Assembly (NCBI RefSeq): GCF_024323335.1 | Contig: NC_066579.1 | Span: 248,675,575 to 248,739,574, forward strand | Source of the DNA: Lathyrus oleraceus | Taxonomy: Eukaryota > Streptophyta > Magnoliopsida > Fabales > Fabaceae | Direction of reading: 5' to 3' | Length of the DNA: 64,000 bases | Shown: piece by piece, positions 2 through 47,199 of the stretch | Layout of the letters: every line of letters begins with the position of its first letter | Position numbering within the stretch: position 1 is the first letter of the stretch | Notes under the pieces: generated by a model | Told to the model about the DNA's origin: nothing | Databases searched by the model: none | Seen by the model: only the letters and a program-made list of their open reading frames with translations | Position numbers and translations under genes: made by a program

Positions 2-2230
2 GTTGAAGGAAGACCGTTGATCATGTATTTGACTGTGCTTGAAGATAGTATGGGTTATGTTCTTGGTCAGCCAGATGAGACTGGAAAGAAAGAATTTGCA
101 ATTTACTACCTCAATAAGATGTTCACGGACTGTGAGACTCGGTATTCGATGCTTGAGAAGACTTGTTGCGCATTGGCCTGGGCTGCTAAGCGTCTGTGTC
201 AGTATATGTTGAATCATACCACTTGGTTGATATCTAAAATGGATCCAATCAAGTATATATTTGAGAAGCCTGCTTTAACTAGGAGGATTGCCCGTTGCCA
301 GATGTTGTTATCATAGTATGATATCGAATACCGATCTCAGAAAGCGATCAAAGGTAGTATCTTGGCTGACCATTTGGCTCACCAACCAATAGAAGATTAC
401 CAGTCAATACAGTATGATTTTCCTGATGAAGAGATTTTGTACTTGAAAATGAAAGAATATGATGAACCATTGCTTGAAGAAGGGCCAGAACCTGGTTCTC
501 GTTGGGGCATGGTATTTGATGGAGTTGTTAATCAATATGGAAATGGCATTGGGGCAGTAATTATCACTCCTCAAGGCACGTATCTACCATTTACAACTAG
601 ATTGACTTTCAAGTGTACAAACAACATGGCAGAATATGAAGCTTGCATTATGAGGCTTAAAGAGGCCATGAATCTCAGAATCAAGTATTTGGATGTCTTC
701 GGTGATTCGGCTTTGGTTGTGAATCAGATCAAAGGTGAGTGGAAGACAAATCAACCTGGTTTAGTACCATATAGAGATTATGCGAGGAGGATTTCAACTT
801 TATTTACAAAGGTTGAGTTTCATCATATCCCTCGAGATGAAAACCGGATGGCAAATGCTCTTGCAACATTGGCATCAATGATTGTAGTGAACTATTCGAA
901 TGAAGTTCCCAATTTATCTGTGATGCATCTTAATAGGCCAGCTCATGTGTTTGTTGTTGAAGAAATCAAAGACGAGAAGCCGTGGTATTACGACATCAAA
1001 TGTTTCCTCCAAATTCAAGTTTACCCGCCTGGGAAATCTTTGAAAGATAAGAAGACTTTGATAAGATTAGCCGGTAATTTCTACTTGAATGGTGATATAC
1101 TGTACAAGAGAAACTTCGACATGGTTTTGCTCAGATGCGTGGATAGACACGAAGCAGACTTGTTGATGACCGAAGTGCACGAAGGTTCCTTTGGTACTCA
1201 TTCCAATGGACATGCAATGGCGAAGAAAATGTTGCGAGCAGGTTACTATTGGCTGACAATGGAATCTGACTGTTGCAAATTTGTGAAGAAGTGCCACAAG
1301 TGTCAAATTTTTGCTGATAAGATACATGTTTCTCCGACACTTTTGAATGTTATTTCTTCCCCATGGCCCTTCACCATGTGGGGAATTGATATGATTGGGA
1401 TGATTGAGCCCAAAGCTTCGAATGGACATCGTTTCATTTTAGTGGAAATTGACTATTTCACCAAATGGGTTGAAGCGGCATCGTATGCAAACGTGACCAA
1501 GCAAGTTGTTGTAAGGTTTATCAAGAATCAGATTATATGTTGTTATGGTGTGCCAAGTAAGATCATTACTGATAATGGATTGAACTTGAATAATAATATG
1601 GTGGAAGCTCTTTGTAAAGACTTCAAGATTGCACATCATAATTCTTCTCCCTACAGACCCAAGATGAATGGGGTTGTTGAAGCTGCGAATAAGAACATCA
1701 AGAAGATTATCCAGAAGATGGTTGTCATGTATAAGGATTGGCATGAGATGCTTCATTTTGCTTTGCATGGATATCGTACATCCATACGCACTTCAACAGG
1801 GGCAACCCCTTTCTCTCTTGTATATGGTATAGAAGCAGTGATCCCCTTAGAGGTTGAGATTCCTTCATTGTGTGTGCTCATGGAAGCCAAGTTAACTGAA
1901 GCTGAATGGTGTCAGACCAGGTTTGACCAGTTGAATTTAACTGAAGAGAAGAGATTAACTGCCATGTGTCATGGTCAGTTATATCAACAGAGAATGAAGA
2001 AAGCTTTTGATAAGAAGGTCAAACCTCGAGTGTTCAAAGAAGGTGGCCTTGTGCTCGAGAAGATTTTGACGTTCAAGCCAGATTCCAAAGGAAAATGGAC
2101 TCCTAATTATGAAGTCCCATATGTTGTTAAGAGAGCCTTTTCAGGCGGGGCGTTGATTCTTACAACAATGTACGGTGAAGAGTTCACTCGTCCTGTGAAC
2201 GCAGATGCAATCAAGAAATACTTCGCTTAA
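2..2230 (+). pseudogene. Ogre pol, 3' part: RNase H, archaeal-type RNase H, integrase
   Basis: The frame enters from outside the window inside the Ty3/gypsy RNase H domain and stays open except for one TAG at 314-316. After that come an archaeal-type second RNase H (about codons 48-170 after the stop; FDG, AEYEA and GDSALVV motifs visible) and an integrase with an HHCC zinc region (CHKC around 1291-1302) and all three DDE acids in GIDMIG, TDNG and VVEAAN. In the second RNase H the last acidic position reads MANALA where the minus-strand copy has MADTLA, so a catalytic Asp may be lost. Two RNase H domains in this order are the hallmark of the Tat/Ogre lineage. The natural stop is at 2228-2230. 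The right copy for comparison is the minus-strand pol at 49026-52463. Confidence 0.93.
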
Positions 2231-3690: not shown

Positions 3691-4665
3691 AGTCTATTAC
3701 CCATTAACTGGTAATATTCTTCTTAGTTTGCAGTTTGTTACTTCTTGCCCAATACCCGGAAAAAGTACCCTTATTTTTCTCCTCAGTAGAGTCCCCAGCG
3801 GATTTATTCCCCAAGAAGTATATCCATCATATGTTCATCCTAACCGGTGACGTATATCTTTCTTTCCCCTACCTGAGTCTATCTTTGATATGTTCATTTT
3901 AACCAGTGACGAATATTCTCATTTTTGGTATTCTACCTAGTAAAAAGGTAGTTGTAATCCCTATTTTGTTCCCAGAGAGTTAATCCTTGTTATATTCATC
4001 TTAACCGATGACGGGTTTTCTTCTCCTTGTGGTTTTCTACCCAGTAACCGGTAGTTGTAAATCCCACCTTATCCCCTTTTCAGAGTCTATCCTTGATATG
4101 TTCATCTTAACCGGTGATGAATTTTCTCTTTCATTGGTTTTCTACCCAGTAACCGGTAGCTGTAAATCCTACATTGTCCCCTCTCAGAGTTAATCCTTGA
4201 TATATTCATCCTAACCGGTGACGGATTTTCTCTCTGACGGTTTTCTATCCAGTTGTCGATAGATGTAATTCCTACCCTTTTTGTTCAGTTGGTATATCCT
4301 TGATATGTTCATCCTGACCGATGACGGATATCCTCCTTGGCATTTTCAGGCAAGTCTATCCTTAATATGTTCATCTTAACCGGTGACGGATTTTCTTCCC
4401 TGTCGAGTTTATCCTTGATATATTCATCCTAACCGATGACGGATACTCTCACTCTTGGTCTTCTGCCCAGTAACTGGTAGATGTAAATCCTATTTTCTGC
4501 AGTTTTTTCCCAGCAAGGCTATTCTTACCCAATAACCAGTAATGAATACTCCCTCTTGGTGGTCCTTAGTGAGTCATCCTTGATATGTTCATCCTAACCG
4601 ATGACGGATGTTCTCTCTATCAGATCTTTATTATCTCCTTACCCAGTAACAGGTAGTAGATAATA
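3691..4665 (+). repeat. Ogre 3' UTR hairpin array (type A)
   Basis: Imperfect tandem repeats of roughly 90-100 bp alternate two small hairpins. Hairpin A has a 5-7 bp stem and an 8-nt loop near CAGTAACC: TATTACC/GGTAATA (3695-3716), CTACC/GGTAG (4037-4054 and 4142-4159), CTATC/GATAG (4245-4262), CTGCC/GGTAG (4463-4480). Hairpin B has a 5-bp stem and a 6-nt loop near CTAACC: TCATT/AGTGA (3894-3909), TCATC/GATGA (3996-4011). Arms vary together, loops hardly vary. Tandem repeats in Ogre 3' UTRs are known for the family; the stem covariation is what I see here. Confidence 0.85.
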
Positions 4666-5156: not shown

Positions 5157-5170
5157 TAAATAGGGGCAGC
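5157..5170 (+). promoter_or_regulatory. Polypurine tract (plus-strand primer site)
   Basis: AAATAGGGGCAGC lies directly before the LTR start TGTAAGACCC. The minus-strand Ogre has the matching AAATAGGGGCATC at its own LTR edge (37430-37446). Confidence 0.85.
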
Positions 5171-8100
5171 TGTAAGACCCCATGTTTGACCCTAAGATCC
5201 CTCATACAATTTCATCATAAGCACTAGCATTGGGATCATACCTTGGAATCCTCCTTACCCCTCTTTCATTGGGTTTGTTTTGGGAGAGATCACCAAACAC
5301 TTTTTGATTGTATCATACTTGTATTTTATCATTTCACTAACTAAATACCAAAAATAAGTCTTTGCATTTTGTCTAACTCTTTTGTAGGAAGGGCATGATT
5401 CCATCTAGGGTTTGAGACCCTCATGAACAAAAAGGACAACCAAGAATTGATTCAAGAATGGTTATAAGCATTATATGAGTCCCAATGTGCTCTACATGTT
5501 ATATTGATCAAGTTTTCTTCAATAGTTTGAGGGTGATTTGCCTTGGAAACCCTAGTTTGACTGGGTATCTTGAGTAACTTCTCCAACAAGCTATCTCACC
5601 AATTGATCAAATTTCTCAAGGGACACTTCAAAATTCATCATCTTATGCATATATGATCTACCATGAGCCAAGGGAGTCAATAGAATTGGAAGTTAGCAAG
5701 TTGGTTGATGGTGGTTGGCCAGATGGATTCATCTGATCAAAACTGGGTCTCCCTAGACCCTATCTCCTCCACTTTTCACCACATGAAAATGATTCCAAGA
5801 TAAAAGTCACTCTAAATGACCTTCCAAACAACTTCCATGTAGAGACCTAGAGTTATTTTTGCTTCGAAAATCATTTGCTATGTTGAAACATTATAGGTCA
5901 TTTTGTCTAAACCCTAACTTGAAAGTCAACTTCCCAAGGCCATAAGTTGCTCAATTTTTATGAGATGAAAGATTTCAAAGTTGAACATTCAAATTAAATG
6001 TGTCTACTTTAACTTTTATGTTTTGAGTGGGAGCTAATTCAACTTTTTTAAGCTTGTGATATGAGGTTACGTTATAGGTCACTTTTGACCTATACCATTG
6101 ACCAAGTGATTTTTCCAAACTTCAAAAATGAATAAGTCTACCATTTCAATCCAAATGACATTAAATTGGTGACTATTTTTAAGTTCTTTGAAAGAGCTAC
6201 AACTTTGATGTAGACACTTTTCTCATTTCAAGCTCATATAAGAAGTTAAGCAAGGTGGAATATTGAGACATATGGCTTGACACTTAGAAAAATTTTGATA
6301 TGTCAAAAATTTCCACCCTTCCACCTCAAATTTCTTCAAGCTCCAAGCTCCAAGAAAAAGTGTTGAACATGAAAGTTTTTCCTCTTGATCTCACCTTTCC
6401 AAAGAGCTCAAATTCATTCATTTTGGACAAGGAATGCATAGGTTGCGCATGGCAGGAACATGGTGTCATCACTTAGCAAAGATCAAACTTCAAATCCAAA
6501 TGCACACTTGCCTTGCAATCCAAGCTGAAATCAGACTACCTAACATTCATTTATGGACTTATGGCAATGATTTTATGGGCCTATGTGCGTCCATGCACCC
6601 ATGCATCATCAATGACCAAATTTGGAAAGTGATTTCAAGTGTGAAAATAGCAATGGTTTCAGCTATAAATAGAGCCTCATATGCTCAACAATCAACATAC
6701 ATTCATGCCAGCTTTGATCCCCCATCTCTAACCCTCACTTTGCAAAGGATAAACCTGAGAAATTCATTTGAATTTGAGGTTGAATTTCCACTGTTTTGAA
6801 ATCGAATCTCCAGGAATCCACAGCCTTTTAAGCATCCAATCCTTCTTCTGCAAGCAAGTGGAGTGAGATCAAGCACAAGCAAGATCAAGATCAGTTGAAT
6901 CCAGACCTCCATTGAAGGTACTTTCCAGAAAATTTGATCTCTTCGATTCTCTCAAATTCTTGCTCAATTCTATGGATTCTTTGGTTGTATGAAGTCCTAC
7001 CAATGTAGGCAAGAAGATTGAGTTTCTTTGAGGCTAAATCGAAGCAACTCAGTTCATGTACCTCAAATTTCAACTCCATGTATCTCTCAATATACTTGGA
7101 GTTAGAGTGAATTGAGGCTAGATTCGAACTCAGTGCCATTTTTACTTTGAAATCATGTCCTTGTTTTTAATTTTGGTGATGGTTGATGGTGGACCAGTCC
7201 AGTGAGGTCCACCGGAGAAGAAGACCGGAGCTACAACTTCGGCCATGTGCTTGCATGTCTCACAGCCATAGGATCCATCTCATTTGTTTTAATCTTGTGC
7301 GTTCCTTTTGAATACCATATCTGTTGCACGCTGACTCATGTGCACGGTGGAACACGTGTTTCTGGCCACTTGATCTGCCACCTCAATTAATGAGGGAGAT
7401 CAAGTGGTCCATGTTTTTTTTTATATTTTAATTTTCATTTTAATTGAATTATTTTCAATGATTCATATTAAATTCAATATTGATCCAAAAAATATGGGAC
7501 TGTCACCAAAAAAATTCAAATGTTTTTCTCTTTCATATTCTGAATTAAAATTATTTTTTCGATCATTATTAATATTTTCCATGAATTAATTGATTTTGCA
7601 TTTGTTTTTAATTGTTTAAAAATATTTTTAAATGTCCAAAAATTATGAAATTTTTTCTCCAAGGTCCTTTGACCTTATTTGACCTATGATAAATATCATG
7701 ACCATTTCTTTGGTGTTTTGATGAGATTTTAGGAATTGGACAAACCATATTTAATTTAAATGCACTATTTTAGTATTTTAATTTGAATAAATGCCAAATA
7801 AATTTGTTGACCAATTGTGATGACTTGTTTATGTTTAACTCTTGTTGTTGGGCCTTGGTCAAGGTTGATTTGACTTTGTCAAATTAATATCATTGGATTT
7901 AGAGGATTGATGGAATGTACATTCCATCTCCCAAAATGAATGGATGATATTAATTTGGTAAAAGTCCTTCTTTGACCAATATGTGTTTTGATCCATTCCC
8001 CTCCCTCTTCATCTTAATCCCTTTCTTCATTCATTCATTCCATTTGGCCTATGACATCTCAAAGTTGTAATGCTAGTTGATTGAAAAATTGATATGAGTA

Positions 8101-9971: not shown

Positions 9972-11165
9972 TGTCATACGGTGAACTGACTTGGGGTATT
10001 TTGCTTTTTTATCGCAATGTCGCGGATAGCAAGAGTCGCCACCGACTTTTCTTTTATCCAATAAGGAAAGGTGGAAAAGAACAGGAAAGACCTCAATAGA
10101 TTTTGGGTTCGGGAGGTACATTATACAAAGGGAAGGTGTTAGCACCCTTTGTATCCATGGTTGTCCATGGGCTCTTAATTACTGGATCACTTATATTTTT
10201 GTCTGAAAAGTGTCGGTGAATTGCTTAAAAAATGTTTAAAAGAGAGTTTAACTTTGTAATGATTCTCGTATGAATGTATACAAAGTATTTATCTCATTTG
10301 ATTTTGAAAATGGTTTAGAAAAATATAACTCGGTAATGATTCTAGTATGAATGTATACCAAGTGGTGATTTTCTAGGATTTGTAAAGTGTAAAGTGTGAG
10401 GGGTGGAAACTGTTTTAGGTTATGATCCAGCAATTGAGAGTTATACCTTCCTAAGGTCGTTATGAACGTTTCCTATCCTTATGAGGGTAAAACTGTCCTT
10501 ACTATTGAGAAGTAAGTAATTTTACCCTTTGGATGTTTAAGGGTCACCGTAGGGTCATCGATAGGTCATTGAAGGCAACAGTTGTAAGGATACCTTAGCA
10601 TTCGAAGGGACGATCATCATTTAACCGTAGGCTACACCGAAGGGTCATCGAGGGACAAAATCGTATTTTCGAAGGCAACATCCGAGGGACTATGATTTAT
10701 TTTATGATGATTTAATCGAAGGGCCATTGCTAAGTGTATCCCCACATTCGCGGGACATGACCGTAATACCGTAATATCATAAGGCAAAAGAGAGGTCCAA
10801 GATCACATATTTAAAGGCCGCATTTTAAAGTTAATTAGGTGATTATGATGAATCTCCACATTAAAATCAATACATTAAAAATAATACATTAAAATTAATA
10901 CATTAAAATTAATTATGTAATTTAGGGTGAGTCTCCACAAGGGTATCCCACAAATAAAGTGGAAGACCTAACGGCAATCTTTTCCTGGGACATGTGAACC
11001 TTGGCAAAATTCAGCAAACGGGTTAGAATACCAAATCGGGGTGTAATCGAAGATTACACCGCAAAAGAAAATACAGCAGCATGAATGTCAGGCAAAACAG
11101 TGCATAATTAACATAGAATAGATCAGATACGCATAAGACATAACAAACAAAATATTAGCGACTGT

Positions 11166-11245
11166 CCCGTTCGCCTCTGCCTCGCCTAGCGAGGGCCTAG
11201 CGAATACTCGCTACATGCTCGCTTAGCGATGTGCTAGCGAGCGGC
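11166..11245 (-). repeat. CG-rich palindrome cluster, transcribed part of LTR
   Basis: Repeated CTCGC and TAGCGA words in both orientations can fold into imperfect hairpins. It lies about 400 bp after the TATA box on the minus strand, so probably inside the transcript. Same in the other LTR at about 19682-19761. Confidence 0.6.
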
Positions 11246-11648
11246 TGCGGGTTTTGAATTTCAGAACAGTATGACTTCAACCTGCGGCATGGCTTATGGC
11301 ATCCAACACATAATTATACGGTTCAGCATTCACAATATTCAGGCACACTTAAATTCACATGCAAAACCTCAAATATGTTTATGAATTCAATTATAATATC
11401 ACATGCAAGTTAAGAACATAAAGCGGTATCACATGCAAATTAAGAAAATAAAGCGATAATAGTAATGCAAACCTGTTTGCAATCGAATTGCAACCTTGAA
11501 TTGGCGAGCCGGATTGAGTTGGGCGGTGGTAGCTTCGGAGCGGAGGAGCGGCCTTCAGGGTTTCTAAAGTAGCCTCCAGGGTTTTTGTGCCAGGGTTTTC
11601 GTCTGTCTCCCTCTGTTTTTCGTCCTCTTTTCATTACTGAAGTGCTGG

Positions 11649-11656
11649 TATTTATA
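11649..11656 (-). promoter_or_regulatory. TATA box, 3' LTR copy
   Basis: TATAAATA on the minus strand. The same box at 20165-20172 in the 5' LTR would drive the element. Confidence 0.6.
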
Positions 11657-11717
11657 ATGCCCTTTTTCATGACCTAATGGGCTCAGAACGAAGCCCGAAA
11701 TTTTTTGTTGTCTGTCA

Positions 11718-11834
11718 GCCTCGCTAGGCGAGCTGGTAGCGAACGTTTGCTTCGCTAGGCGAGCGCGTAGCGAACGTTCGCTAGGCGAGCGTGTAGCGAA
11801 CATAACGTTCGCTAGGCGAGCGTGTAGCGAACAG
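11718..11834 (-). repeat. 26-bp CG-rich direct repeats upstream of the TATA box
   Basis: Three full copies (11751-11776, 11777-11802, 11808-11833) and a partial one (about 11720-11744). Each holds TTCGCTA and its complement TAGCGAA about ten bases apart. On the minus strand they lie about 60-180 bp before the TATA box, the usual place of promoter elements. Confidence 0.75.
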
Positions 11835-11971
11835 GCCAGTTTGGGCCATTTTCTGGAGTGGGCCATTCGTGAGCTGGGCCTTTGTCCCTTTAAAATCAGT
11901 GCCATAAAATGAGTCGGAATGCCCCTGAAAAATGTCTTGAACTATTGATGGGCAAATTTTGGGGTATGACA

Positions 11972-11985
11972 GCTGCCCCTGTTCA
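11972..11985 (-). promoter_or_regulatory. Polypurine tract of the non-autonomous element
   Basis: On the minus strand GAACAGGGGCAGC abuts the LTR start TGTCATACC. This fixes the element's direction. Confidence 0.8.
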
Positions 11986-12039
11986 ATATTCTTGAACCGA
12001 GAGAGTTAGGATGGCGTGCATGCCATTCGTGGTCTGGAG

Positions 12040-14110
12040 GTGGAAGATTATTGAACACTAGAATGCCCCCAAAAATTTGCACTTGTCAATTAGTCTTGAC
12101 GGAGATGGGCTTAAAGATGCCATCCAGGAAATTTGATGATGAAAGCTTCAGATTGCGCCGTACATTAGGCCAATTTGAAGACATGGGCGCCACACTGGGT
12201 CGTACGTTAGACCGAATAATGAGTCATCCATTAGGCTGTTGACTTCGCTGGGGAGTCGGAGTGTGTCATATGCTGCTGGGGATAAAGGATCAGAATGGAT
12301 CATGCGCTATATCGTATCTGAGTTAAAGAGAGGGCCGTACGTTAGGCTGTGTCTGATGATGAAAGGGGGTAGTCGTACACTAGACTACACTTCAGAAATG
12401 TACCTTACACTAGGTAGCATCTGAGGAGACGAAGGTCTAATTGGGTCGTACATTAGACCGTATCTGAGCAGAATGAGCCGTCCATTAGGCTGAATCTGAT
12501 GATAAAAGGGGGTAGTCGTACACTAGACTACACTTCAGAAATGTACCGTACACTAGGTAGCATCTGAGGAGACGAAGGTCTAATTGGGTCGTACATTAGA
12601 CCGTATCTGAGCAGAATGAGCCGTCCATTAGGCTGAATCTGATGATAAAAGGGGGTAGTCGTACACTAGACTACACTTCAGAAATGTACCGTACACTAGG
12701 TAGCATCTGAGGAGACGAAGGTCTAATTGGGTCGTACATTAGACCGTATCTGAGCAGAATGAGCCGTCCATTAGGCTGAATCTGATGATAAAACAGGGGG
12801 TAGTCGTACACTAGACTACACTTCAGAAATGTACCGTACACTAGGTAGCATCTGAGAAGATGAAGGTTTAACTTGGTCGTACATTAAACCATATCTGAGC
12901 AGAATGAGCCGTCCATTAGGCTGAATCTGCTGAAAAGGGAGTAGTCGTACACTAGACTACCATTCAGAAATGTACCTGTCCGAAGGTAGCATCTGAGAAG
13001 ATGAAGGTTTAACTTGGTCGTACATTAAACCATATCTGAGCAGAATGAGCCGTCCATTAGGCTGAATCTGCTTAAAAGGGAGTAGTCGTACACTAGACTA
13101 CCATTCGGAAATGTACCTGTCCGAAGGTAGCATCTGAGTAAGGGAGCAGCCGTATACTAGACTACCATTCAGAAATGTACCTGTCCGAAGGTAGCATCTG
13201 AGTAAGGGAGTAGCCGTATACTGGACTACCATTCAGAAATGTACCTGTCCGAAGGTAGCATCTGAGTAAGGGAGTAGCCGTATACTAGACTACCGTTCAG
13301 AAATGTACCTGTCCGAAGGTAGCATCTGAGTAAGGGAGTAGCCGTATACTAGACTACCATTGAGAAATGTACCTGTCCGAAGGTAGCATCTGAGTAAGGG
13401 AGTAGTCGTACACTAGACTACCGTTCAGAAATGTACCTGTCCGAAGGTAGCATCTGAGTAAGGGAGTAGCCGTATACTAGACTACCATTCAGAAATGTAC
13501 CTGTCCGAAGGTAGCATCTGAGTAAGGGAGTAGTCGTACACTAGACTACCGTTCAGAAATGTACCTGTCCGAAGGTAGCATCTGAGTAAGGGAGTAGTCG
13601 TATACTAGACTACCATTCAGAAATGTACCTGTCCGAAGGTAGCATCTGAGTAAGGGAGTAGCCGTATACTAGACTACCATTCAGAAATGTACCTGTCCGA
13701 AGGTAGCATCTGAGGAGGGAGTAGCCGTATACTAGACTACCATTCAGAAATGTACCTGTCCGAAGGTAGCATCTGAGGAGATAAAGGTCTAACTTGGTCG
13801 TACATTAAACCTTATCTGAGTTGTCCGAGGACTTGACGGTCTAACTTGGTCGTACATTAGACTTTCACTGAGTTATTGAAGGTCAGAATGGATCGTACGC
13901 TAGATCGTATCTGAGTTGAAGGAGTCATGTGTTGAGATGAATCAGGATGGACCGTATGCTAGGCAGTACCTGAGAAGTGAAGGTCCAACTGGGTCGTACA
14001 TTAGACCGTGTTGGGAGTAGTTGAAGATCAGAATGGATCGTATGCTAGATCGTATCTGAGTTGTTGAAGGTCAGAATGGATCGTATGCTAGATCGTATCT
14101 GAGTTGTTGA
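12040..14110 (-). repeat. 3' UTR hairpin array (type B), 143-bp then 64-bp periods
   Basis: Nearly every unit is a stem of 4-6 bp around an 8-nt loop. On the plus strand: GTAGTC-GTACACTA-GACTAC (12512-12531), AGCC-GTCCATTA-GGCT (12476-12491), GGTC-GTACATTA-GACC (12444-12459), TACC-GTACACTA-GGTA (12544-12559), GATC-GTACGCTA-GATC (13891-13906). Four such hairpins make a 143-bp unit repeated from 12421; from 13081 to about 13770 a two-hairpin 64-bp unit is repeated about eleven times. The array is superficially CRISPR-like but is not one. Confidence 0.88.
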
Positions 14111-15362
14111 AGGTCAGAATGGATCGTACGCTAGATCGTATCTGAGTTGTTGAAGGAGTCATATGTTGAGCTGAATGAGAATGAACCGTACGCTAGGCTA
14201 TATCTGCTAGTATTTGTATATGTTGTATTTGCAATGAATATTTGGGATAGGCTTATAGATGCCATCGTTAGGAGGATGTCAGAATGAATGTTGACATGGA
14301 GTATATCTGAAAGATGTATCTGAAGAAGAAAGTAGTCGTACGCTGGACTACACCTCGGAATGTACCGTACGCTAGGCAGTATCTGAGGGATATAGTTAAA
14401 TCTTGAGTGTAATAGATAAAGATGCCCGTCTGAATGGACCTTTGTTTTGACTGTGTCAGGAGGATAATTGACCTGAAAAATAAAGTTAGCTTCATGCCAT
14501 GTCATGATGCATGAGATGCAAATGTTGTATGCATGCGAACTGATGTAATGAATGAATTATGCGTCTGAAATAAATGCGAACATTGTATGCATGTATATGT
14601 TATGAAATGATGTAATGTATATGATGCGGAGTGAACATTGTATGTAGGTATGTGATGTGAAGTGATGTAATGAATGCACTATGTGTCTGAAACGTTCTTC
14701 CAGGGGACTCTACTGGGGGAATAAATCTCAGTCTTCTGGTCGGAGATATTTGTATTGATGACCCTTCCTTAGCCAGGGGTATTTGACCTTTATCTGATGG
14801 CAGAGATATTCAACAGAGCCTGGCTGGGGGTAGAAGAGATGACCAGTCTAGTGATGCCCATTTCTTCTGGGGAATAACTGGCTTAGCCGGGGAATAGAAT
14901 TGGCAACGGATTCATTGGGAAGCGTGATTAGACCTTCTCCTCGATCCTAAAGTCCTTTCGTAATTGCTATTGCCCTTTTAGGCATGCATTTTTTTTGTAA
15001 ACATTGATCATATTCAAATGCATAAATCAATTCAAGTTAAATCAATGGACGTTTACGCAAACAAAACAGAGAAAGTAAAACAAAAGCATCTTTTTGGTAT
15101 TGATTTTGAAAGAGGGCCTATACATAGGCAATTTGAGTACAAGGAGACAGAAATCCTAGTAAGAGGAAATTGTCAGGCAAACAAAGAGAAAGCTATGCAG
15201 AAAAAGTCCTATCGATTCTAATTCCACCACTGTCATTATGTCTTCAAGCATCTCATCTCCTGCTGTCGGATAGAAGTGATTGGCTGGTTCAGTCCCTTGA
15301 ACTTGGTTGAAGCAGACAGAGAACGGGGCATAGTCATACGCTTTTAATCCCTAATTTTTGCC
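14111..15362 (-). other. 3' UTR of the non-autonomous element, pol-proximal part
   Basis: No gene. It contains ATG-rich low-complexity sequence (14500-14690) and motifs such as GACTCTACTGGGGG (about 14708) that mimic the primer-binding site on the plus strand. Confidence 0.65.
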
Positions 15363-15534
15363 TGGACCGCCTTTTCAGGTTTTCAGTCCACCGGGATACC
15401 CTTTTTTGCTCAAGCCGCCTTTTCAGGTTTTCGACTTGCCGGGTGTATGTCTTTATATGTTTATCCCTAATTTTTGCCCGAACCCTTTTGGTTCGCCGGG
15501 ATGCCCTTACTTTTGCCTAGGTACGTCGACCTAG
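15363..15534 (-). other. Four hairpins just after the integrase stop
   Basis: On the minus strand, from the stop onward: CTAGGT/ACCTAG (15517-15534), CGAACC/GGTTCG (15479-15495), CAAGTCG/CGGCTTG with AAAA bulge and CCT-GAAA-AGG (15411-15438), and TGGACTG/CGGTCCA with the same bulge and inner stem (15363-15390). These match the unit seen at 2250-2325, with CCC/GGG changed to CCT/AGG on both arms. Spacers again read GCAAAAATTAGGG. Confidence 0.75.
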
Positions 15535-15544
15535 CGGGTCTCTT

Positions 15545-16139
15545 TTATGCGTAGTATTTTTTAACTATGTCAACGTTCACAGGATGCGGGAACTCTTCGC
15601 CATCCATTGTAGCAAGCATCATGGCTCCACCAGAGAATACCTTCTTAACTACGAATGGCCCTTCGTGTGTGGGAGTCCATTTGCCCCTGGGATCACCTTG
15701 TGGTAGAATGATATGCTTGATAACTAAGTCGCCGATTCGGTACACTCGTCTCTTGACCTTTTTGTTGAATGCCTGGGTCATGCGCTTCTGATATATCTGC
15801 CCATGACATACAGCCGCAAGTCTCTTTTCATCAATCAGATTTATCGGATAGAGTCGAGTTTGAATCCATCCATCCACACCTAAGCCTGCATCTTTCACAA
15901 TTCTTAGAAAGGGAATCTGAACTTCCACTGGTAAAACGGCTTCCATTCCATAGACTAAAGAGAAAGGGGTTGCCCCTGTCAAAGTGCGGTAACCATGAAG
16001 AGCAAAAGGTAACATCTCATACCAGTCTTTGTATGTTCTTGATATTGTTAGCAGCCTCCACGGCGTCGTTCGTCTTTGGCCGGTACGGAGAAGAGTTATG
16101 GTGTTTTATGCAGAGTTCAGTTTAATACCATTATCAGTG
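15545..16139 (-). pseudogene. Integrase C-terminal remnant
   Basis: On the minus strand the frame 16015-15545 reads from the region after the DDE glutamate (HGYRT..GATPFSLVYGMEAVLPVE) to the natural end IVKKYYA. Upstream, 16016-16139 retains VITDNG and shifted, stop-containing integrase sequence. The zinc-binding N-terminus and first catalytic Asp are absent. Sequence is clearly diverged from the Ogre integrases in this window, so the element comes from another Tat/Ogre family. Confidence 0.85.
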
Positions 16140-16830
16140 ATAACTCTTTCAGGAGACAGCGGGTTTCTCGAATGTATATTTGATAAGATCCATCTTAGAA
16201 ATCAATAAAGCGGTATGGTTCAACATATACTGTCTTAGTCGGCGAGCAGCCCAAGCCAAAGCGCAGCAAGCTTTCTCGAGCTGTGAGTATCTTGTTTCAC
16301 AGTCGGTACCTTTTGCTAAGGCAGTGTATGACATGCTCTTTTCGACCAGACTCGTCATGTTGCCCCAGCACACCCTATTGAATTTTCTAACACGGTCAAA
16401 TACGTGATTAAAGGTCTTCCTTCAACTGGTGGCATCGGAACTGGAGGTTCTTGGGGATACTTCTTGATTTTGTCATTCATCATTCCATACCATCTCTCGA
16501 TTTTTCTTTTTTAGTAATTTGAAGATGGTTTGCAGGTAGCAGTCAAATGTGGGATGAATCGGGCAATGTAATTCGAGTGCCCCAAGAAACCTCTGACTTC
16601 TTTCTTGTCTATTTCAGTACCCATTGCAATTTCAATTGATTCCTCCTGCGGCTGTATGGTCTTTTCTTCTTGTAGTACCAGTCTGGCGAGTTCTCAGGTA
16701 CTTCACAATCTTCCTCACTTCTATCCTCGGCTTGGTAGATCGGATTTTCAAAGTCATAATGAACAGTAGCAGAGTCATTACCAACAGGATCCAGAGTGGA
16801 TATGGATCGGCAAATTGTTACGTGAGTGTG
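16140..16830 (-). pseudogene. Pol remnant: pre-RT linker, RT tail, RNase H
   Basis: On the minus strand an acidic linker (YDFENPIYQAEDRSEED, about 16760-16710) like the one before RT in the plus-strand remnant at 28560 is followed, after loss of the RT core near 16620-16640, by the RT tail (KKEVRGFLG) and an RNase H part (YSQLEKACCALAWAARRLRQYML, about 16300-16225). It ends at EKPAV and jumps to integrase near 16141. The catalytic RT YVDD box is missing. Confidence 0.8.
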
Positions 16831-17016
16831 TGCAAGAAAACATAGCTTGTTTGAAAAATGACAGGAAAGATAAAGAGCGCAATATCTGAATGCAAAAAGT
16901 CCATTGATTTATTGAATGTAAATATGCTTATGAAAATGACAAAACCCTTGAAAAATTAGCTATTATGCCCCGGGTATAGACACAATGCTTTTGAAATACT
17001 AAAATAGCAATAACAA
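16831..17016 (-). other. Intron-like spacer between mini-gag/protease tail and pol remnant
   Basis: A T-rich, stop-filled stretch on the minus strand between the mini-gag stop and the acidic pre-RT linker, in the place of the spacer at 52464-52745. Ogre transcripts are known to be partly spliced between gag-pro and RT. The exact splice sites are not certain from sequence alone. Confidence 0.5.
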
Positions 17017-17619
17017 TTACTCCCGACTAAAGGAAATCGGGATAGTGTCTTCAGCCTTCCAATTATCGAGTCTGTCACCAATTGTTGGGTAGACCCAGCT
17101 ATCCAGGTCGCAATCGCTGTCAGCATCCTCTATAGCATTAAGAGTTTTGTCATGATTAGGCAGAGGAGCAGTGATGACCTTAGGAGTCTCAGGCGGATCC
17201 AATTCAAATTCTCCGGCGTCGATCATATCCTGAATTTTATTCTTCAATGACCAACAATCGTTCGTATTACGCCCGGGACTATCGGAGTGATATGCACACC
17301 TGGCGTCGGGATTATAACTAGGAGAAGTAGTGTTGGGTTTTGCAGGAGGATCTCTGAGGGTAATTAAATTTGATTTTAGCATACCCTGCAGTGCTTGTGC
17401 TAAAGTCATATTGATCTTCGTAAACTGCCTTCTTCCCGGGTTAATGTGCCTCACAGATTTCTTGTCTTTTTTCTTCTCGAGCAAGAGAGCCTTCAGTTCT
17501 TTCTGCCCCCTGGATAAGTTCAAGATCATCTTCTGGAGTTGAGCATTCTGAGCCTGGAGATCCTTGACAGTTTGTTCGAGGTCCATTTTTCTGTTTGTGG
17601 AGGAAAACCGTGAGAACAC
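17017..17619 (-). CDS. Mini-gag fused to protease C-terminal tail (200 aa)
   Basis: An uninterrupted 200-codon frame. Residues 12-55 form a leucine/glutamine-rich, probably coiled-coil segment like the Tat gag N-terminus, ending in a lysine-rich stretch. Residues about 105-130 hold the nucleocapsid motif (C108, H111, C122; the usual second His is Arg117). The end (VYPTIGDRLDNWKAED) matches the tail that follows protease in the other elements. Capsid and the protease catalytic core are deleted without breaking the frame. A start at Met12 (17586) is equally likely. It is the only element gene here without a stop. Whether it is translated, and whether it binds RNA, is inference. Confidence 0.75.
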   Translation of the reverse strand: MFSRFSSTNRKMDLEQTVKDLQAQNAQLQKMILNLSRGQKELKALLLEKKKDKKSVRHINPGRRQFTKINMTLAQALQGMLKSNLITLRDPPAKPNTTSPSYNPDARCAYHSDSPGRNTNDCWSLKNKIQDMIDAGEFELDPPETPKVITAPLPNHDKTLNAIEDADSDCDLDSWVYPTIGDRLDNWKAEDTIPISFSRE

Positions 17620-18464
17620 TGATCCCTTTAGAGTACCTGTTATGCTATGTTATGCTATGCAATGCATGAAATGTTTTCAAGGCCTTTTGGAATTTAACTT
17701 TGCATAAACTACCGAAAAGGGAAACTTTTTTTTTTGTTTTTTTTTTTTTGTTTTTTTTTTTTTCATACAAAACAGAGCAAAGTTAAATCCCTAAGTCCTT
17801 GAAATGGTTAGTACAATGTTATGATGTCATGATGTTATGATGTTATGATGTTATGAGGTTAAATAAATAACAAGCACAAGCAAGTCACACAACCATCATT
17901 CCTAGGTTTTAAGGCTTGCATGAGTTCTATAGGTAAGTACCCTCCCCACTGAAGTATGGTTGGTTCAACCAGTCCTAGAATAGTAATCGGGTTCTAAAAG
18001 GATCTCAAATCATCGACCTTTCTTTAAGTCCGCTTCAGTGCAACACCAAGTGGTTGACCAAAGCTTCCCTAAAGTCCAATCTCAAAGAGTGTAGTATCGA
18101 GTATCAACCAACTCCAGTCGGAACCGAAGTCAGTTATCTCACTACTTTCTAATGGCTAGGATGAGTCAATTAGGGTTCTAAAGGTCTGGTTAATGCTTTA
18201 ATGACACCACGCGGAAGCCAAATTTTTCCTCAAGTGAACATGAGGAACATCAGGACATCCAAAGTGTCACATTAACCGTAGCCATCATTTTAACCATTCC
18301 AGTATACGCCGGATAGTCGCGATGATCTATTGCTACTTACCTAAGGTACACTAGATCCGGGTGTAGGATCTTTCACTCAAGAATACCCAAGCAATCCCTT
18401 AAAAGTAAATCAGACAATTTTAAATAAGTGATCTTTTTTTTAAGGTAACCTCTCTTTTTAAAGT
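17620..18464 (-). other. 5' UTR of the non-autonomous element
   Basis: No gene seen. On the minus strand it contains a nearly pure A tract of about 35 nt (complement of 17729-17763), and a TGTTATGA-type microsatellite at about 17815-17860. Confidence 0.7.
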
Positions 18465-18483
18465 GTCCCCAGCAGAGTCGCCA
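18465..18483 (-). promoter_or_regulatory. Primer-binding site, tRNA-Arg type
   Basis: TGGCGACTCTGCTGGGGAC on the minus strand, four bases from the 5' LTR end. Identical to the primer site of the large minus-strand Ogre at 60097-60115. Confidence 0.88.
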
Positions 18484-18487
18484 GTTC

Positions 18488-20487
18488 TGTCATACGGTGA
18501 ACTGACTTGGGGTATTTTGCTTTTTTATCGCAATGTCGCGGATAGCAAGAGTCGCCACCGACTTTTCTTTTATCCAATAAGGAAAGGTGGAAAAGAACAG
18601 GAAAGACCTCAATAGATTTTGGGTTCGGGAGGTACATTATACAAAGGGAAGGTGTTAGCACCCTTTGTATCCATGGTTGTCCATGGGCTCTTAATTACTG
18701 GATCACTTATATTTTTGTCTGAAAAGTGTCGGTGAATTGCTTAAAAAATGTTTAAAAGAGAGTTTAACTTTGTAATGATTCTCGTATGAATGTATACAAA
18801 GTATTTATCTCATTTGATTTTGAAAATGGTTTAGAAAAATATAACTCGGTAATGATTCTAGTATGAATGTATACCAAGTGGTGATTTTCTAGGATTTGTA
18901 AAGTGTAAAGTGTGAGGGGTGGAAAATGTTTTAGGTTATGATCCAGCAATTGAGAGTTATACCTTCCTAAGGTCGTTATGAACGTTTCCTATCCTTATGA
19001 GGGTAAAATTGTCCTTACTATTGAGAAGTAAGTAATTTTACCCTTTGGATGTTTAAGGGTCACCGTAGGGTCATCGATAGGTCATTGAAGGCAACAGTTG
19101 TAAGGATACCTTAGCATTCGAAGGGACGATCATCATTTAACCGTAGGCTACACCGAAGGGTCATCGAGGGACAAAATCGTATTTTCGAAGGCAACATCCG
19201 AGGGACTATGATTTATTTTATGATGATTTAATCGAAGGGCCATTGCTAAGTGTATCCCCACATTCGCGGGACATGACCGTAATACCGTAATATCATAAGG
19301 CAAAAGAGAGGTCCAAGATCACATATTTAAAGGCCGCATTTTAAAGTTAATTAGGTAATTATGATGAATCTCCACATTAAAATCAATACATTAAAAATAA
19401 TACATTAAAATTAATACATTAAAATTAATTATGTAATTTAGGGTGAGTCTCCACAAGGGTATCCCACAAATAAAGTGGAAGACCTAACGGCAATCTTTTC
19501 CTGGGACATGTGAACCTTGGCAAAATTCAGCAAACGGGTTAGAATACCAAATCGGGGTGTAATCGAAGATTACACCGCAAAAGAAAATACAACCGCATGA
19601 ATGTCAGGCAAAATAGTGCATAATTAACATAGAATAGATCAGATACGCATAGGACATAACAAACAAAATATTAGCGACTGTCCCGTTCGCCTCTGCCTCG
19701 CCTAGCGAGGGCCTAGCGAATACTCGCTACATGCTCGCTTAGCGATGTGCTAGCGAGCGGCTGCGGGTTTTGAATTTCAGAACAGTATGACTTCAACCTG
19801 TGGCATGGCTTATGGCATCCAACACATAATTATACGGTTCAGCATTCACAATATTCAGGCACACTTAAATTCACATGCAAAACCTCAAATATGTTTATGA
19901 ATTCAATTATAATATCACATGCAAGTTAAGAACATAAAGCGGTACCACATGCAAATTAAGAAAATAAAGCGATAATAGTAATGCAAACCTGTTTGCAATC
20001 GAATTGCAACCTTGAATTGGCGAGCCGGATTGAGTTGGGCGGTGGTAGCTTCGGAGCGGAGGAGCGGCCTTCAGGGTTTCTAAAGTAGCCTCCAGGGTTT
20101 TTGTGCCAGGGTTTTCGTCTGTCTCCCTCTGTTTTTCGTCCTCTTTTCATTACTGAAGTGCTGGTATTTATAATGCCCTTTTTCATGACCTAATGGGCTC
20201 AGAACGAAGCCCGAAATTTTTTGTTGTCTGTCAGCCTCGCTAGGCGAGCTGGTAGCGAACGTTTGCTTCGCTAGGCGAGCGCGTAGCGAACGTTCGCTAG
20301 GCGAGCGTGTAGCGAACGTAACGTTCGCTAGGCGAGCGTGTAGCGAACAGGCCAGTTTGGGCCATTTTCTGGAGTGGGCCATTCGTGAGCTGGGCCTTTG
20401 TCCCTTTAAGATCAGTGCCATAAAATGAGTCGGAATGCCCCTGAAAAATGTCTTGAACTATTGATGGGCAAATTTTGGGGTATGACA
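18488..20487 (-). repeat. 5' LTR of the non-autonomous element
   Basis: 2000 bp, TGTCATAC to GTATGACA, with about a dozen single-base differences from 9972-11971 and no indels seen. Promoter repeats lie at about 20234-20350. GGTGA follows at 20488-20492. Confidence 0.95.
20165..20172 (-). promoter_or_regulatory. TATA box, 5' LTR
   Basis: TATAAATA on the minus strand, preceded by the 26-bp CG-rich repeats. Confidence 0.6.
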
Positions 20488-30840: not shown

Positions 30841-31700
30841 AAAGTATATTATCCACTACCGGTTACTGGGTAAGGAGATAACAAAATCTGTCAGAGAGGA
30901 TATCCGTTACCGGTTAGGGTAAACATATCAAGGATGACTCGCTGAGGGCAGCCAGGAGGTGTATTCATTACCAGTTATTGGGTAAGAATAAACTGTTGGG
31001 GAAAAGCCAAAATAGGATTTACAACCACTGGCAACTAGGCAAAAGACCAAAGAAAGAGAATATTCGTCACTTGTTAAAGTGAACATATCAAGGATAGACT
31101 CAAAAGGAAGAATATCTGTCATCAGTTAAGATGAACATATCAAGGATAGACTGCCAGAAAAAGTAGGAGTTACATCTATCAATTACTGGATAGAATACCG
31201 AAAAGAGGATATCCGTCGTCGGTTAGGATGAACATATCAAGGATAGAATCTGAGGGGAGAAATAGGAATTACATCTATCAGTTACTGGATAGAAAACCAA
31301 AAGAGAGAATATCCGTCATCGGTTAAAGTGAACATATCAAGGATAGACTCCGCAAGGGGAAGCAGGATTTACAACTACCGGTTACTGGGCAGAAGACCAC
31401 AAATAGGAGGAAATCCGTCATCGGTTAGGATGAACATATCAAGGATTAACCCTCTGGGGGAAAGAAATAGGGATTACAACTATCTTTTACTGGGTAGAAT
31501 ACCAAAGAGAGAGAATATCAGTCATCAGTTAGGATGAACATATCAAGGATAGACTCCCTGGGGAAACATGAGAACAAATCCGCTGGGGAAAAAAATTACT
31601 CTTGTCGGGCATTGGGCAAATGTAAAATACTCACAAATTAAGAAGATTATTACCAACGATTGGGTAATAGACTCCTAGGGGACCAAAAGCATCTATCTAG
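30841..31700 (-). repeat. Ogre 3' UTR hairpin array (type A), inverted fragment
   Basis: Same array type as 3691-4665, read on the minus strand. Good examples on the plus strand: TATTC-A-TTACC around AGTTATTG with GGTAA-GAATA (30962-30990, ten pairs and one bulged A), TCTATC/GATAGA (31175-31194), TATTACC/GGTAATA (31648-31669), and the six-nt-loop form TCACT/AGTGA (31067-31082). Confidence 0.85.
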
Positions 31701-37899: not shown

Positions 37900-38960
37900 C
37901 TGGGAAATGTCCAAACAGGACTCATATGAGGAAAACAACAGGATGAGGTATTATCGGTTACTAGGTAATAAGCTCAAGGAGATGTGTGATCAAAACACCG
38001 GTATAAGGGTGAGAGAACAACACACTCGAAGAGAATGAATATCTAAGACCGGTATGAGGGTGAGAGATATCAAACATCGAAAATCATTTGAGGAAGACCT
38101 AAAAAAGGTATATTTCAACTCAGGAAATCTGACTCCACAAGGGACAAAAAGTCATAAAAGGGAGCAGAAGGGAAGGAACACCAGGGATATCGGTTACTGG
38201 GCATATAATAGGTGACCAACCAAGCGTGAATTGGGTAATATTTCCAAGACACTCATCATCCGAAGGGAGAGCTGAAAAAACGAACTCGATTACAGGATGG
38301 GCATTCGACTCCGCAAAAGGGATACGAATCTTACTCGACTGGGGAAGAACAAAAGACTTCGACCAAAGAGCGCATGAGATATATTTTCTATTACCGTCAG
38401 AACATAGATAATATACTCGCATGGAAGACTATCCACAACCGGTTACTGGGTTAACAAAGGATAAATCGACCGAAAAGAAAGGACATCGGGATACCGAATA
38501 CTAGGTATAAAATGATGACCAAATAAAGGGAGAAACGATCATTACCAACCAAGGGTAAATGAAAGATGACTCGATGGGGATACATTGAGAAAGGCAATGA
38601 TCCGGGAGATATATCACCGGTTACTGGGAGATATACTCAAAATGTGAAGGAATATCGGTACCGAATATTGGATAAAGATAACCGACAAAGAGGGGATTAC
38701 ATCTACCGGATACTGGGTAGAAAAACCCTGAAGAGTAACCGTCATCGGTTAGGATGAACAAAAAATAAGGTTAACTCTGCAAGGGGATAAAATAGGGTTT
38801 ACAGCTACCGGTTACTGGGTAGAAAACCATAGAAATATGACTTATAACTACCGGTTACTGGGTAGAAGGCCACAAACTCCGACGGGAAAAGATGGACCAT
38901 TACTGGTTACTGAGCAATCATTCATCTAAACTACGGGGAAGTGCAGGGGAAGTAACAAGA
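37900..38960 (-). repeat. 3' UTR hairpin array (type A) of the minus-strand Ogre
   Basis: Hairpins with loops near GGTTACTG on the plus strand: TATATC-A-CC/GG-A-GATATA (38610-38635), TCTACC/GGTAGA (about 38701-38721), ATACC/GGTAT (about 38490-38508), several CTACC/GGTAG between 38800 and 38870. Arms differ strongly between copies but stay complementary. Confidence 0.82.
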
Positions 38961-42101: not shown

Positions 42102-42103
42102 AT

Positions 42104-42115
42104 TGGCATCAGAGC
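42104..42115 (+). promoter_or_regulatory. Primer-binding site, initiator tRNA-Met type
   Basis: TGGCATCAGAGC, one mismatch from the usual TGGTATCAGAGC, two bases after the LTR. Confidence 0.85.
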
Positions 42116-42171
42116 AGGCACCCTGCCTGTGAATTTCTGGGTGAGATCTAGGGAAGTTACTTTCTAGTACC

Positions 42172-47192: not shown

Positions 47193-47199
47193 TTTTGAC

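What the first reader, a model, noticed from the sequence alone, without database searches (positions are those of the whole stretch)
3691..4665. Ogre 3' UTR is an array of hairpins whose stems covary around fixed loops
Seen directly: in the plus-strand Ogre and in both minus-strand copies (30841-31700, 37900-38960), copies of hairpin A keep an 8-nt loop near CAGTAACC but carry different matched arms: CTACC/GGTAG, CTATC/GATAG, TATTACC/GGTAATA, TATATC/GATATA, and TATTC-A-TTACC with GGTAA-GAATA. Hairpin B keeps a 6-nt loop near CTAACC with TCATC/GATGA, TCATT/AGTGA, TCACT/AGTGA. Loops being more conserved than stems, with paired changes on both arms, is the pattern expected of a structure under selection. 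Ogre 3' UTR repeats are known; I know of no report of this covariation. Possible roles (inference): RNA packaging, stability, protein docking, or pairing between loops.
Basis: seen in the sequence. Interest (0 to 1): 0.88.

Follow-up and report, generated by a model that had tools for sequence, protein, structure and literature searches.

The report
Hairpin arrays in plant Ogre retrotransposons
The stretch after the last gene of giant plant Ogre-type retrotransposons holds dozens of short hairpins whose two arms change together, which suggests that the folded shape is kept by selection, although what it does is still unknown.

Summary
The hairpins are real and their arms covary, here and elsewhere in the genome. 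Three window arrays hold 31 A units (loop near CAGTAACC) and 17 B units (loop near CTAACC). Own arms pair better than swapped arms: A 0 of 20000 permutations; B not in the window (1112 of 20000), but 0 of 5000 pooled with genome copies. Of 20 further 3' ends picked by their PPT|LTR junction, ignoring hairpins, 15 hold two or more full units (9 of 10 of the G type, 4 of 8 of the commoner T type), 102 on the sense strand, 0 antisense. A young gutted element in this window and L054 show the same design with other loops.

Single-pair covariation passes an all-pairs threshold only in two sets chosen partly with pairing in view. Which strand folds, RNA or single-stranded DNA, is open. I read it as a selected cis-acting hairpin array, probably a multi-copy docking site; Gag as partner is conjecture.

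The parts
3691..4665 (+). 3' UTR hairpin array c1: 9 A units (loop starts 3702, 3750, 3938, 4042, 4147, 4250, 4468, 4530, 4644) among 9 B units (loop starts 3840, 3899, 4001, 4107, 4211, 4314, 4376, 4429, 4594); partly a 104-bp tandem repeat
3697..3714 (+). A unit TTACC-CATTAACT-GGTAA (7-bp stem TATTACC/GGTAATA with the outer pairs)
4037..4054 (+). A unit CTACC-CAGTAACC-GGTAG
4245..4262 (+). A unit CTATC-CAGTTGTC-GATAG: both arms differ together from CTACC/GGTAG
4639..4656 (+). A unit TTACC-CAGTAACA-GGTAG with outer helix TTATTATCT / AGATAATAG
4589..4604 (+). B unit TCATC-CTAACC-GATGA
3894..3909 (+). B unit TCATT-TTAACC-AGTGA (one G.U pair)
30841..31700 (-). 3' UTR array c2, an isolated fragment (the nearest pol remnant, 28.9-30.2 kb, is on the other strand): 9 A units (loop starts 31662, 31614, 31492, 31387, 31287, 31188, 31037, 30980, 30868) and 7 B units (31532, 31428, 31326, 31226, 31129, 31077, 30917)
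37900..38960 (-). 3' UTR array c3: 13 A units (loop starts 38912, 38860, 38817, 38715, 38670, 38626, 38553, 38503, 38448, 38199, 38058, 38007, 37963) and 1 B unit (38752)
317..2230 (+). pol 3' part (RNase H-like, integrase) upstream of array c1; gives the sense strand
48906..52208 (-). pol (RT, RNase H, second RNase H-like domain, integrase zinc domain) upstream of array c3, separated from it by a copia insertion
5158..5205 (+). polypurine tract and start of the 3' LTR (TGTAAGACCCC) of the c1 element
9972..20487 (-). Element D: LTR element with 2-kb LTRs (1990 of 2001 compared letters identical), 5-bp duplication GGTGA, PPT AGGGGCAGC, only broken pol remnants found
12150..14450 (-). Hairpin array of element D: 44 in-register 8-nt-loop units (YARYRTAC-like) with stems GTAGTC/GACTAC, AGCC/GGCT, TACC/GGTA, GGTC/GACC, GATC/GATC and G.U variants, plus 12 TTCGGACA-loop units on TACC/GGTA stems

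Best explanation
The region between pol and the 3' LTR of these Ogre-type elements is a selected, multi-copy hairpin array. Each unit is a 4-9 bp stem, in some units with a second helix beyond an internal loop or bulge, closed by a short loop that is similar within an element family and different between families (YAGTAACC-like, CTAACC-like, YARYRTAC-like, AGCCAGA-like). The sequence of a stem differs freely between units as long as its arms match; conserved positions inside the loop are few (A2, A5, A6 in A; T2-A4 in B).

Shown: sequence, arm matching, orientation of the loops along the sense strand, presence in 15 of 20 sampled 3' ends. Inferred: the array works in the element's RNA as repeated cis-acting docking sites. 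Two points lead me there: the loop differs between families, and a gutted element that must be mobilised in trans kept the array through a recent move.
For: Arm matching. A: 19 distinct arm pairs, 74 Watson-Crick matches against a swapped mean of 57.8 and maximum of 70, 0 of 20000; the 21 units that meet the loop rule (13 distinct arm pairs) 0 of 20000. D: 28 of 68 loop sites have 4 of 4 pairs against 3 of 456 elsewhere; 13 distinct arm pairs, 0 of 20000 (3 of 20000 with G.U allowed). 20 three-prime ends chosen without regard to hairpins: 72 of 145 loop sites have at least 4 of 5 pairs, against 1 of 35 on the antisense strand; swap 0 of 5000 (1 of 5000 with G.U). Pooled with window and L067, loops within 1 mismatch: 92 sites, A swap 0 of 5000; B 94 sites, 0 of 5000. 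Post hoc sets: L054 12 distinct 0 of 20000, L067 10 distinct 1 of 20000.

Tree-based null (my own R-scape-like script, not R-scape). Stem covariation sum: D and A 0 of 300, pooled A 0 of 300, the 20 sampled ends 1 of 200, L054 and A31+L067 0 of 400. Single pairs at all-pairs E < 0.05: L054 pair 1 (E < 0.01) and A31+L067 pair 4 (E 0.03). The tool's own count gives 25 both-side-changed cells against shuffled means of 9.8 (D) and 6.6 (A), 0 of 500 each.

Constraint. Prevailing c1-family states: 83 WC, 6 GU, 1 AC of 90 pairs in 18 units. Stem letters differ from the family majority at 247/6231 against spacer 1533/22502; shared variants per site, stem against spacer, p 0.001 with and without CpG sites. 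Double changes that keep pairing: 6 against 1.38 expected (5 of 2000) after removing 7 whole-unit exchanges; unpaired doubles 1 against 2.7.

Outer helices. A own flanks pair better than swapped, 0 of 20000; B 1 of 20000. In D, across a 3x3 internal loop, 11 of 44 units have a perfect 4-bp outer helix of three kinds (CAGA/TCTG 9, CAGG/CCTG 1, CCAA/TTGG 1).

Cis-acting hint. D has a target duplication and 99.45% identical LTRs, but only pol scraps and no recognisable gag.
Against: No function was tested. All-pairs single-pair significance is missing for D, for B, for A in the window alone, for the 20 sampled ends (best stem pair E 1.28) and for the larger pooled A set (pair 4 ranks first of all column pairs but E 0.21). 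The two sets that pass were chosen partly with pairing in view: L054 was found by a scan for paired loop families, its rows were narrowed after (the unfiltered 66 sites, 57 distinct arm pairs, give 22 of 20000), and A31 and the 10 L067 units were picked by eye from wider lists (L067 unfiltered, 17 sites: 1 of 20000; 130 of 20000 with G.U). In A31+L067 a non-stem pair (5' position -5 with 3' position +7) scores higher than the best stem pair. A in c1 and c2 alone: 0 double changes on one branch. B is weak: tree-null covariation sum reached by 5 of 300 and 6 of 300. In one search two measures for D are not above shuffles (pairs with both sides changed 295 of 500, pair types 401 of 500).

The strand is not settled. 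Antisense folds as well or better against shuffles. GU against AC is 20:8 at family level, but 17:14 for A and 19:26 for B among distinct arm pairs of the pooled sample and 17:10 among distinct window arm pairs with swapped background ratios of 1.2-1.5.

Loops are not conserved beyond spacers within the c1 family, which is not what a strict loop-docking site predicts; only part of each loop is. Covariance models of A and D do not find each other's arrays, so A and D are not shown to be homologous. c1 folds only 1.9 and c2 1.0 standard deviations better than shuffles, and one control stretch (upstream of c3) reaches 2.2. In D, 13 of 44 units have no outer pair at the tested place. Swap tests treat related copies as independent, apart from collapsing identical arms.
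Confidence: 0.45

Rival explanations
1. Mutational origin without selection: during reverse transcription the enzyme switches templates inside small hairpins and rewrites one arm as the complement of the other, while tandem duplication and unit exchange spread the result. Arms then match without any function.
For: The arrays are hypervariable tandem repeats, and the literature proposes illegitimate recombination or abnormal strand transfer for their origin (PMC7004042, passage read). Whole-unit exchange between positions is visible: 7 unit copies with 3 or more differing stem letters were removed. GU against AC does not clearly exceed background.
Against: Rewriting predicts contiguous perfect arms; D and several A units have helices continuing across internal loops with unrelated letters. 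Stems diverge less than spacers within the c1 family; correction alone keeps pairing but need not lower divergence. Unpaired doubles are not in excess while paired ones are.
Confidence: 0.17
2. Nuclear export element, working like the CTE of simple retroviruses or the RTE of mouse IAP: repeated hairpins recruit a host export factor so that unspliced, intron-bearing Ogre RNA leaves the nucleus.
For: [quoted passage not shown] a review describes cis-RNA export elements of mouse LTR elements and says no direct export study exists for plants (PMC12786077, passages read). The position in the 3' UTR fits.
Against: Loops differ between families (CAGTAACC-like, YARYRTAC-like, AGCCAGA-like), which is odd for one conserved host factor. 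The copy number (18 units in c1, 56 in D) far exceeds known export elements (recalled). The intron was not looked for in these copies.
Confidence: 0.14
3. The hairpins act on the copying of the element: they pause reverse transcriptase or tune strand transfer between the two packaged RNAs, or protect RNA from decay. No loop-reading protein is needed.
For: Within the c1 family the stem, not the loop, is the most conserved part; loops differ between families; arrays show unit exchange.
Against: Loops keep a common pattern inside each family across units with unrelated stems, and parts of the loop (A2, A5, A6; B2-B4) are as conserved as stems, which pure pausing does not need.
Confidence: 0.17
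4. DNA-level signal: palindromes read as double-stranded DNA by a dimeric protein, extruded as cruciforms, or used as landing sites by other retrotransposons.
For: Antisense is as foldable as sense. Reviews cite a preference of nested plant LTR retrotransposons for palindromes and for 3' UTRs of older copies (PMC12477314 and PMC9033089, passages).
Against: A dimeric site should fix the half-sites and free the spacer; here the arms vary and the middle has a pattern. Stems of 4-7 bp are too short for stable cruciforms (general knowledge). A landing role would not explain selection on the element.
Confidence: 0.05

Closest known systems
Ogre/Tat 3' UTR tandem repeats (hypervariable region; source of satellite DNA)
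   Same: Same place, between pol and the 3' LTR, and tandemly repeated (PMC7004042 passages).
   Different: The passages seen describe them as hypervariable tandem repeats. The searches run here showed no report of hairpin units or covarying stems; the key paper, Macas et al. 2009, was seen only as a citation and was not read.
Gmr9/GmOgre minisatellite array of soybean (families A-E)
   Same: Interleaved short repeat families downstream of the coding region of a soybean Ogre (PMC3305785, part 1 of 3 of the text read).
   Different: Described there as minisatellites with lengths and counts; the consensus sequences are in a supplement that I could not read, so hairpins were not tested.
Retroviral packaging signals and dispersed RNA packaging signals of small viruses (recalled)
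   Same: Several hairpins with a shared loop and variable stems in a genomic RNA.
   Different: Usually few and near the 5' end in retroviruses (recalled); here 14 to 56 units at the 3' end; binding to Gag untested.
CTE (recalled) and RTE / MTE export elements of mouse LTR elements (PMC12786077 passages)
   Same: Cis-acting RNA structures of LTR elements.
   Different: Those are single elaborate structures (MTE with pseudoknot and kissing loop by the review; the rest recalled); these are many simple hairpins with family-specific loops.

Membership tests
Tat clade (Ogre or Retand) of Ty3/gypsy - host elements of arrays c1 and c3 | Ty3/gypsy pol with integrase after RT/RNase H and an extra RNase H-like domain between RNase H and integrase | tested here: met
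   RVT_3 followed by H2C2 and rve in 317-2227; RVT_1, RT_RNaseH, then RVT_3 and H2C2 in 52208-49731 minus; that domain order is given for Ogre and Retand in PMC6317226
Ogre rather than Retand | PBS type, TSD length and extra ORF that separate the two | not tested
Ogre rather than Retand | Intron between gag-pro and RT | not tested
   reported in print for pea and Medicago Ogres (PMC6317226); 5' parts of these copies not examined
Autonomous Ogre - element D | Intact gag-pol | tested here: not met
   12 of 17 minus-strand frames of 60 aa or more scanned: one RNase H scrap; tblastn finds RT/RNase H pieces in three frames and the integrase end; called non-autonomous and Ogre-related
Ogre 3' UTR tandem repeats | Tandem repeats between pol and 3' LTR | tested here: met
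   104-bp and 100-bp arrays in c1 and c2, 143-, 64- and 43-bp arrays in D; PPT|LTR downstream of c1, c3 and D; c2 is a fragment and c3 is not a regular tandem array
RNA element with conserved secondary structure | Significant covariation of stem pairs against a phylogeny-aware null | tested here: met
   at whole-stem level in A, D and L054; single pairs at all-pairs E < 0.05 only in two partly post hoc sets; B inconclusive; own script, not R-scape
RNA element with conserved secondary structure | Sense-strand RNA as the folded molecule | tested here: inconclusive
   GU:AC 20:8 but 17:14 and 19:26; antisense folds equally well
Known Rfam family | Match above gathering score | tested here: not met
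   0 matches in the window
Retrotransposon packaging signal | Binding by Gag and effect on packaging | not testable with these tools
   no experiment possible
Export element (CTE-like) | Export of unspliced RNA | not testable with these tools
   no experiment possible

The most novel reading that the evidence does not exclude
Each Ogre family carries its own multi-copy RNA address label: many hairpins with a family-specific loop and freely changing but matched stems, read by the family's own Gag. The hypervariable 3' UTR would then be a fast-evolving recognition code, kept even by gutted elements that borrow the proteins of others, and the satellite DNAs born from these regions would begin as structured RNA elements.
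Probability: 0.25. Interest if true: 0.88.

Novelty: new variant of a known kind. Interest (0 to 1): 0.68.

Why it matters
Ogre elements make up 20-33% of the pea genome by a 2007 estimate (PMC2206039, passages), and their 3' UTR repeats gave rise to most satellites of a related species, Lathyrus sativus (PMC7004042, passage). If these repeats are selected hairpins, a region treated as hypervariable filler becomes a functional RNA element with very many copies. It would offer a concrete handle on how plant LTR elements choose or move their genomic RNA; a recent review says that export has not been studied directly in plants (PMC12786077).

Tried and rejected
Counting hairpins of any kind: not unusual. 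A blind scan for loop families with matched arms: L054 z 6.0 and L067 5.2, but c1, c2, c3 and D score 4.3, 4.4, 4.3 and 4.9, no better than L064 (4.8, no array recognised) and close to 80 random pieces of the genome (top 4.8, which is L054 itself, next 4.3). So the scan does not separate the window arrays from background; the loop-anchored tests do. An earlier distinct-stem count did not separate them either (random pieces reach 6, L054 5).

One covariance model for all: models from D and from A do not find each other. The motif C[YARYRNHC]G with three more pairs occurs 35 times in the four arrays and 0 times in the rest of the window, but it was drawn up from these arrays, so I do not count it as evidence of homology.

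Strand test by G.U against A.C: suggestive at family level, not decisive. Loop pairing with the same element: exact complements of CAGTAACC, TAGTGTAC and AGCCAGA 0 each, of CTAACC 1 with 1.26 expected. Outside relatives: 0 matches of a B pattern and 0 confirmed pol relatives in viral contigs; 4 genome contigs matches, all in bacterial records and taken as chance. Rfam: nothing.

Rows dropped: 4 of 39 fetched c1-family copies (L030, L037, L045, L050) for low shared words before the counts; two A units with 7- and 9-nt loops left out of alignment A2 (29 of 31), and padded or cut by one letter in the tree tests; 24 of 68 D loop sites set aside as register-shifted by loop letters before (all 68 are). 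The 31 A units were partly chosen by eye; the 10 outside the 2-mismatch loop rule may be biased towards pairing. The 21-unit set and the 20 PPT-chosen ends are the controls.

Full report
What is there. The finding lies on the sense strand of an Ogre-type element whose pol end is at 317-2230 (RNase H-like and integrase domains) and whose polypurine tract and LTR start at 5158 and 5171. Two more arrays lie on the minus strand: 30841-31700, an isolated fragment, and 37900-38960, downstream of the pol at 48.9-52.2 kb, from which a copia insertion separates it. I fixed units by their loops: 31 A units and 17 B units (the list was partly made by eye). c1 holds nine A and nine B units, in part with a period of about 104 bp.

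More than chance. At 8-mers within two mismatches of CAGTAACC, 20 of 34 sites inside the arrays have at least four Watson-Crick pairs in five, against 13 of 354 in the rest of the window. The number of hairpins as such is not exceptional. Swapping 3' arms between units lowers pairing: 74 matches observed, 57.8 expected, none of 20000 permutations reach it for A; B alone is not significant in the window (1112 of 20000). With only the 21 A units that meet the loop rule, 13 distinct arm pairs, the result holds, 0 of 20000. Flanks beyond the 5-bp stem also match their own partner better than others (A 0 of 20000, B 1 of 20000), with the caveat that related units are counted apart.

Covariation against a tree. 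I wrote an R-scape-like test: FastTree, parsimony states, substitutions re-placed on each branch, G-test with average-product correction. For A the share of Watson-Crick stem cells exceeds all 300 nulls with 5 pairs and 15-nt flanks, and all but 3 of 300 with 6 pairs and 10-nt flanks; the stem covariation sum exceeds all 300. For D both exceed all 300. For B, 13 and 10 of 300 nulls reach the pairing share and 5 of 300 the covariation sum. Single pairs pass only a test restricted to the proposed stem (A pair 4; D pairs 2, 4, 5; B pair 4), except in two sets named below. A in c1 and c2 alone shows no double change on one branch.

A second design in the same window. Element D (9972-20487, minus strand) has 2-kb LTRs identical at 1990 of 2001 compared letters and a 5-bp duplication, but only broken pol pieces and no recognised gag (12 of 17 minus-strand frames scanned), so it probably moved recently with proteins from elsewhere. 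Between those pieces and its 3' LTR it carries 44 in-register units with loops such as TAGTGTAC, TAATGTAC and TAGCGTAC, on stems GTAGTC/GACTAC, AGCC/GGCT, TACC/GGTA, GGTC/GACC and GATC/GATC, plus G.U intermediates such as GTAGTC/GGCTAC, and 12 units with loop TTCGGACA on TACC/GGTA. Both-side-changed cells: 25 against a shuffled 9.8, 0 of 500, though two coarser measures do not exceed shuffles. Eleven of 44 units have a perfect outer helix across a 3x3 internal loop, of three different kinds; 13 have no outer pair there.

The genome. One genome search was answered early: the window lies in a 3.795-Gb assembly with seven large contigs, which fits pea (inference). I fetched 39 close copies of the c1 array, picked by similarity to a 94-nt piece, and kept 35 of them plus c1. 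In the prevailing states of this family, 83 of 90 stem pairs are Watson-Crick, 6 G.U and 1 A.C, so many broken pairs of the single c1 copy are later damage. Stem letters differ from the majority at 247 of 6231, loops 306 of 4380, spacers 1533 of 22502; the stem-spacer difference in shared variants has p 0.001, also without CpG sites. Only loop positions A2, A5, A6 and B2-B4 are as slow as stems. Paired double changes exceed shuffles: 11 against 2.66 (0 of 2000), and 6 against 1.38 (5 of 2000) after removal of 7 whole-unit exchanges.

Samples from elsewhere. Twenty arbitrary 10-kb stretches held five PPT|LTR-like junctions. One (L067) has a c3-like array; its 10 units give swap 1 of 20000, the unfiltered 17 sites also 1 of 20000. 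One (L054) has an array with a new 7-nt loop, AGCCAGA, on GATTC/GAATC, GATCT/AGATC, GATCC/GGATC and GAGCC/GGTTC. It was noticed by a scan for paired loop families, so its tests are post hoc: 20 rows, swap 0 of 20000, pair 1 is the top column pair with all-pairs E below 0.01; all 66 loop sites over 2.7 kb, 22 of 20000. L062 and L064 showed no array that I recognised and L063 was cut short at 516 nt. The exact junction AAATAGGGGCANCTGTAAGACCC occurs 23973 times, the reversed control 0 times. I took 20 of the places listed, all in the first 20 Mb of one contig, the first ten with G, the first eight with T, one A and one C at the variable letter, without regard to hairpins. G is over-represented in this choice; T is the commonest letter in the listing. 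In the 1.25 kb fetched upstream, 15 of 20 have at least two units with all five pairs (G.U allowed): 9 of 10 G, 4 of 8 T, and the A and C ones. All 102 units are on the sense strand; among 320 random pieces (both strands) only two have two units, both in L067. The sense-only result reflects the loop letters and does not by itself show which strand folds. Loop sites chosen without pairing: 72 of 145 well paired against 1 of 35 antisense, swap 0 of 5000, tree null 0 of 200 for pairing and 1 of 200 for covariation. Pooling these with the window and L067, loops within one mismatch: 92 sites, 80 rows; swap 0 of 5000; tree null 0 of 300; the best column pair of all is stem pair 4, with all-pairs E 0.21. 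With the 31 window units plus L067 that pair has E 0.03, second to a non-stem pair.

How it may work. The arms are free to differ between units if they match, and stems are the slowest part inside a family, so pairing is what is kept. Loops are similar within an element family and differ between families. Loops show no exact complement excess in the same element. This fits repeated cis-acting hairpins that hold a short loop open for a partner. A family-specific loop and retention by a gutted, recently moved element point to an element-encoded partner, hence Gag and packaging; that step is inference. Export of intron-bearing RNA, control of reverse transcription, and a purely mutational origin remain open. 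Whether RNA or single-stranded DNA folds could not be decided.

What is known. Ogre 3' UTR tandem repeats and their role as source of satellites are in print (PMC7004042, passages), soybean Gmr9 minisatellites likewise (PMC3305785, first of three parts), and tandem arrays in the related Retand lineage (PMC11963269, passages). In the passages and listings I saw, none mentions hairpins or covariation in these repeats; 'hairpin' and 'secondary structure' have 0 occurrences in PMC7004042 and PMC11963269. Searches: in an open-access library; Macas et al. 2009 was not looked up or read. So the hairpin reading was not found in print by these searches, but the element and the repeats are known: a new variant of a known kind.

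Noticed in passing
9972-20487 (-): Recently inserted non-autonomous Ogre-like element (LTRs 99.45% identical, TSD GGTGA) with only pol scraps and a 2.3-kb hairpin array
   Followed up: yes
11721-11833 and 20237-20348: Inside both LTRs of element D, 31/57-bp repeats with near-perfect palindromes TTCGCTA...TAGCGAA whose 10-nt middle varies
   Followed up: no
13076-13777 (-): The homogeneous 64-bp sub-array of D has one of its two hairpin loops as TTCGGACA instead of TAGTGTAC while the stem TACC/GGTA is kept (12 units in the array)
   Followed up: partly
40709-48872: Copia element with 99.2% identical LTRs and long gag and pol frames, inserted between the pol and the array of the c3 element
   Followed up: partly
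32622-36487 and 60122-64000: Two direct copies, 94.5-97.9% identical, of a segment that I did not identify
   Followed up: no
L054 rc 7335-8090: Third loop family (7 nt, AGCCAGA) upstream of a PPT followed by TGTAACACCCC
   Followed up: partly
G000: 23973 exact PPT|LTR junctions of this type in the assembly; the letter before CTGTAAGACCC is mostly T or G in the places listed, which seems to mark sub-families (c3-like and c1-like), and the T type had fewer full hairpin units (4 of 8 ends with two or more, against 9 of 10)
   Followed up: partly
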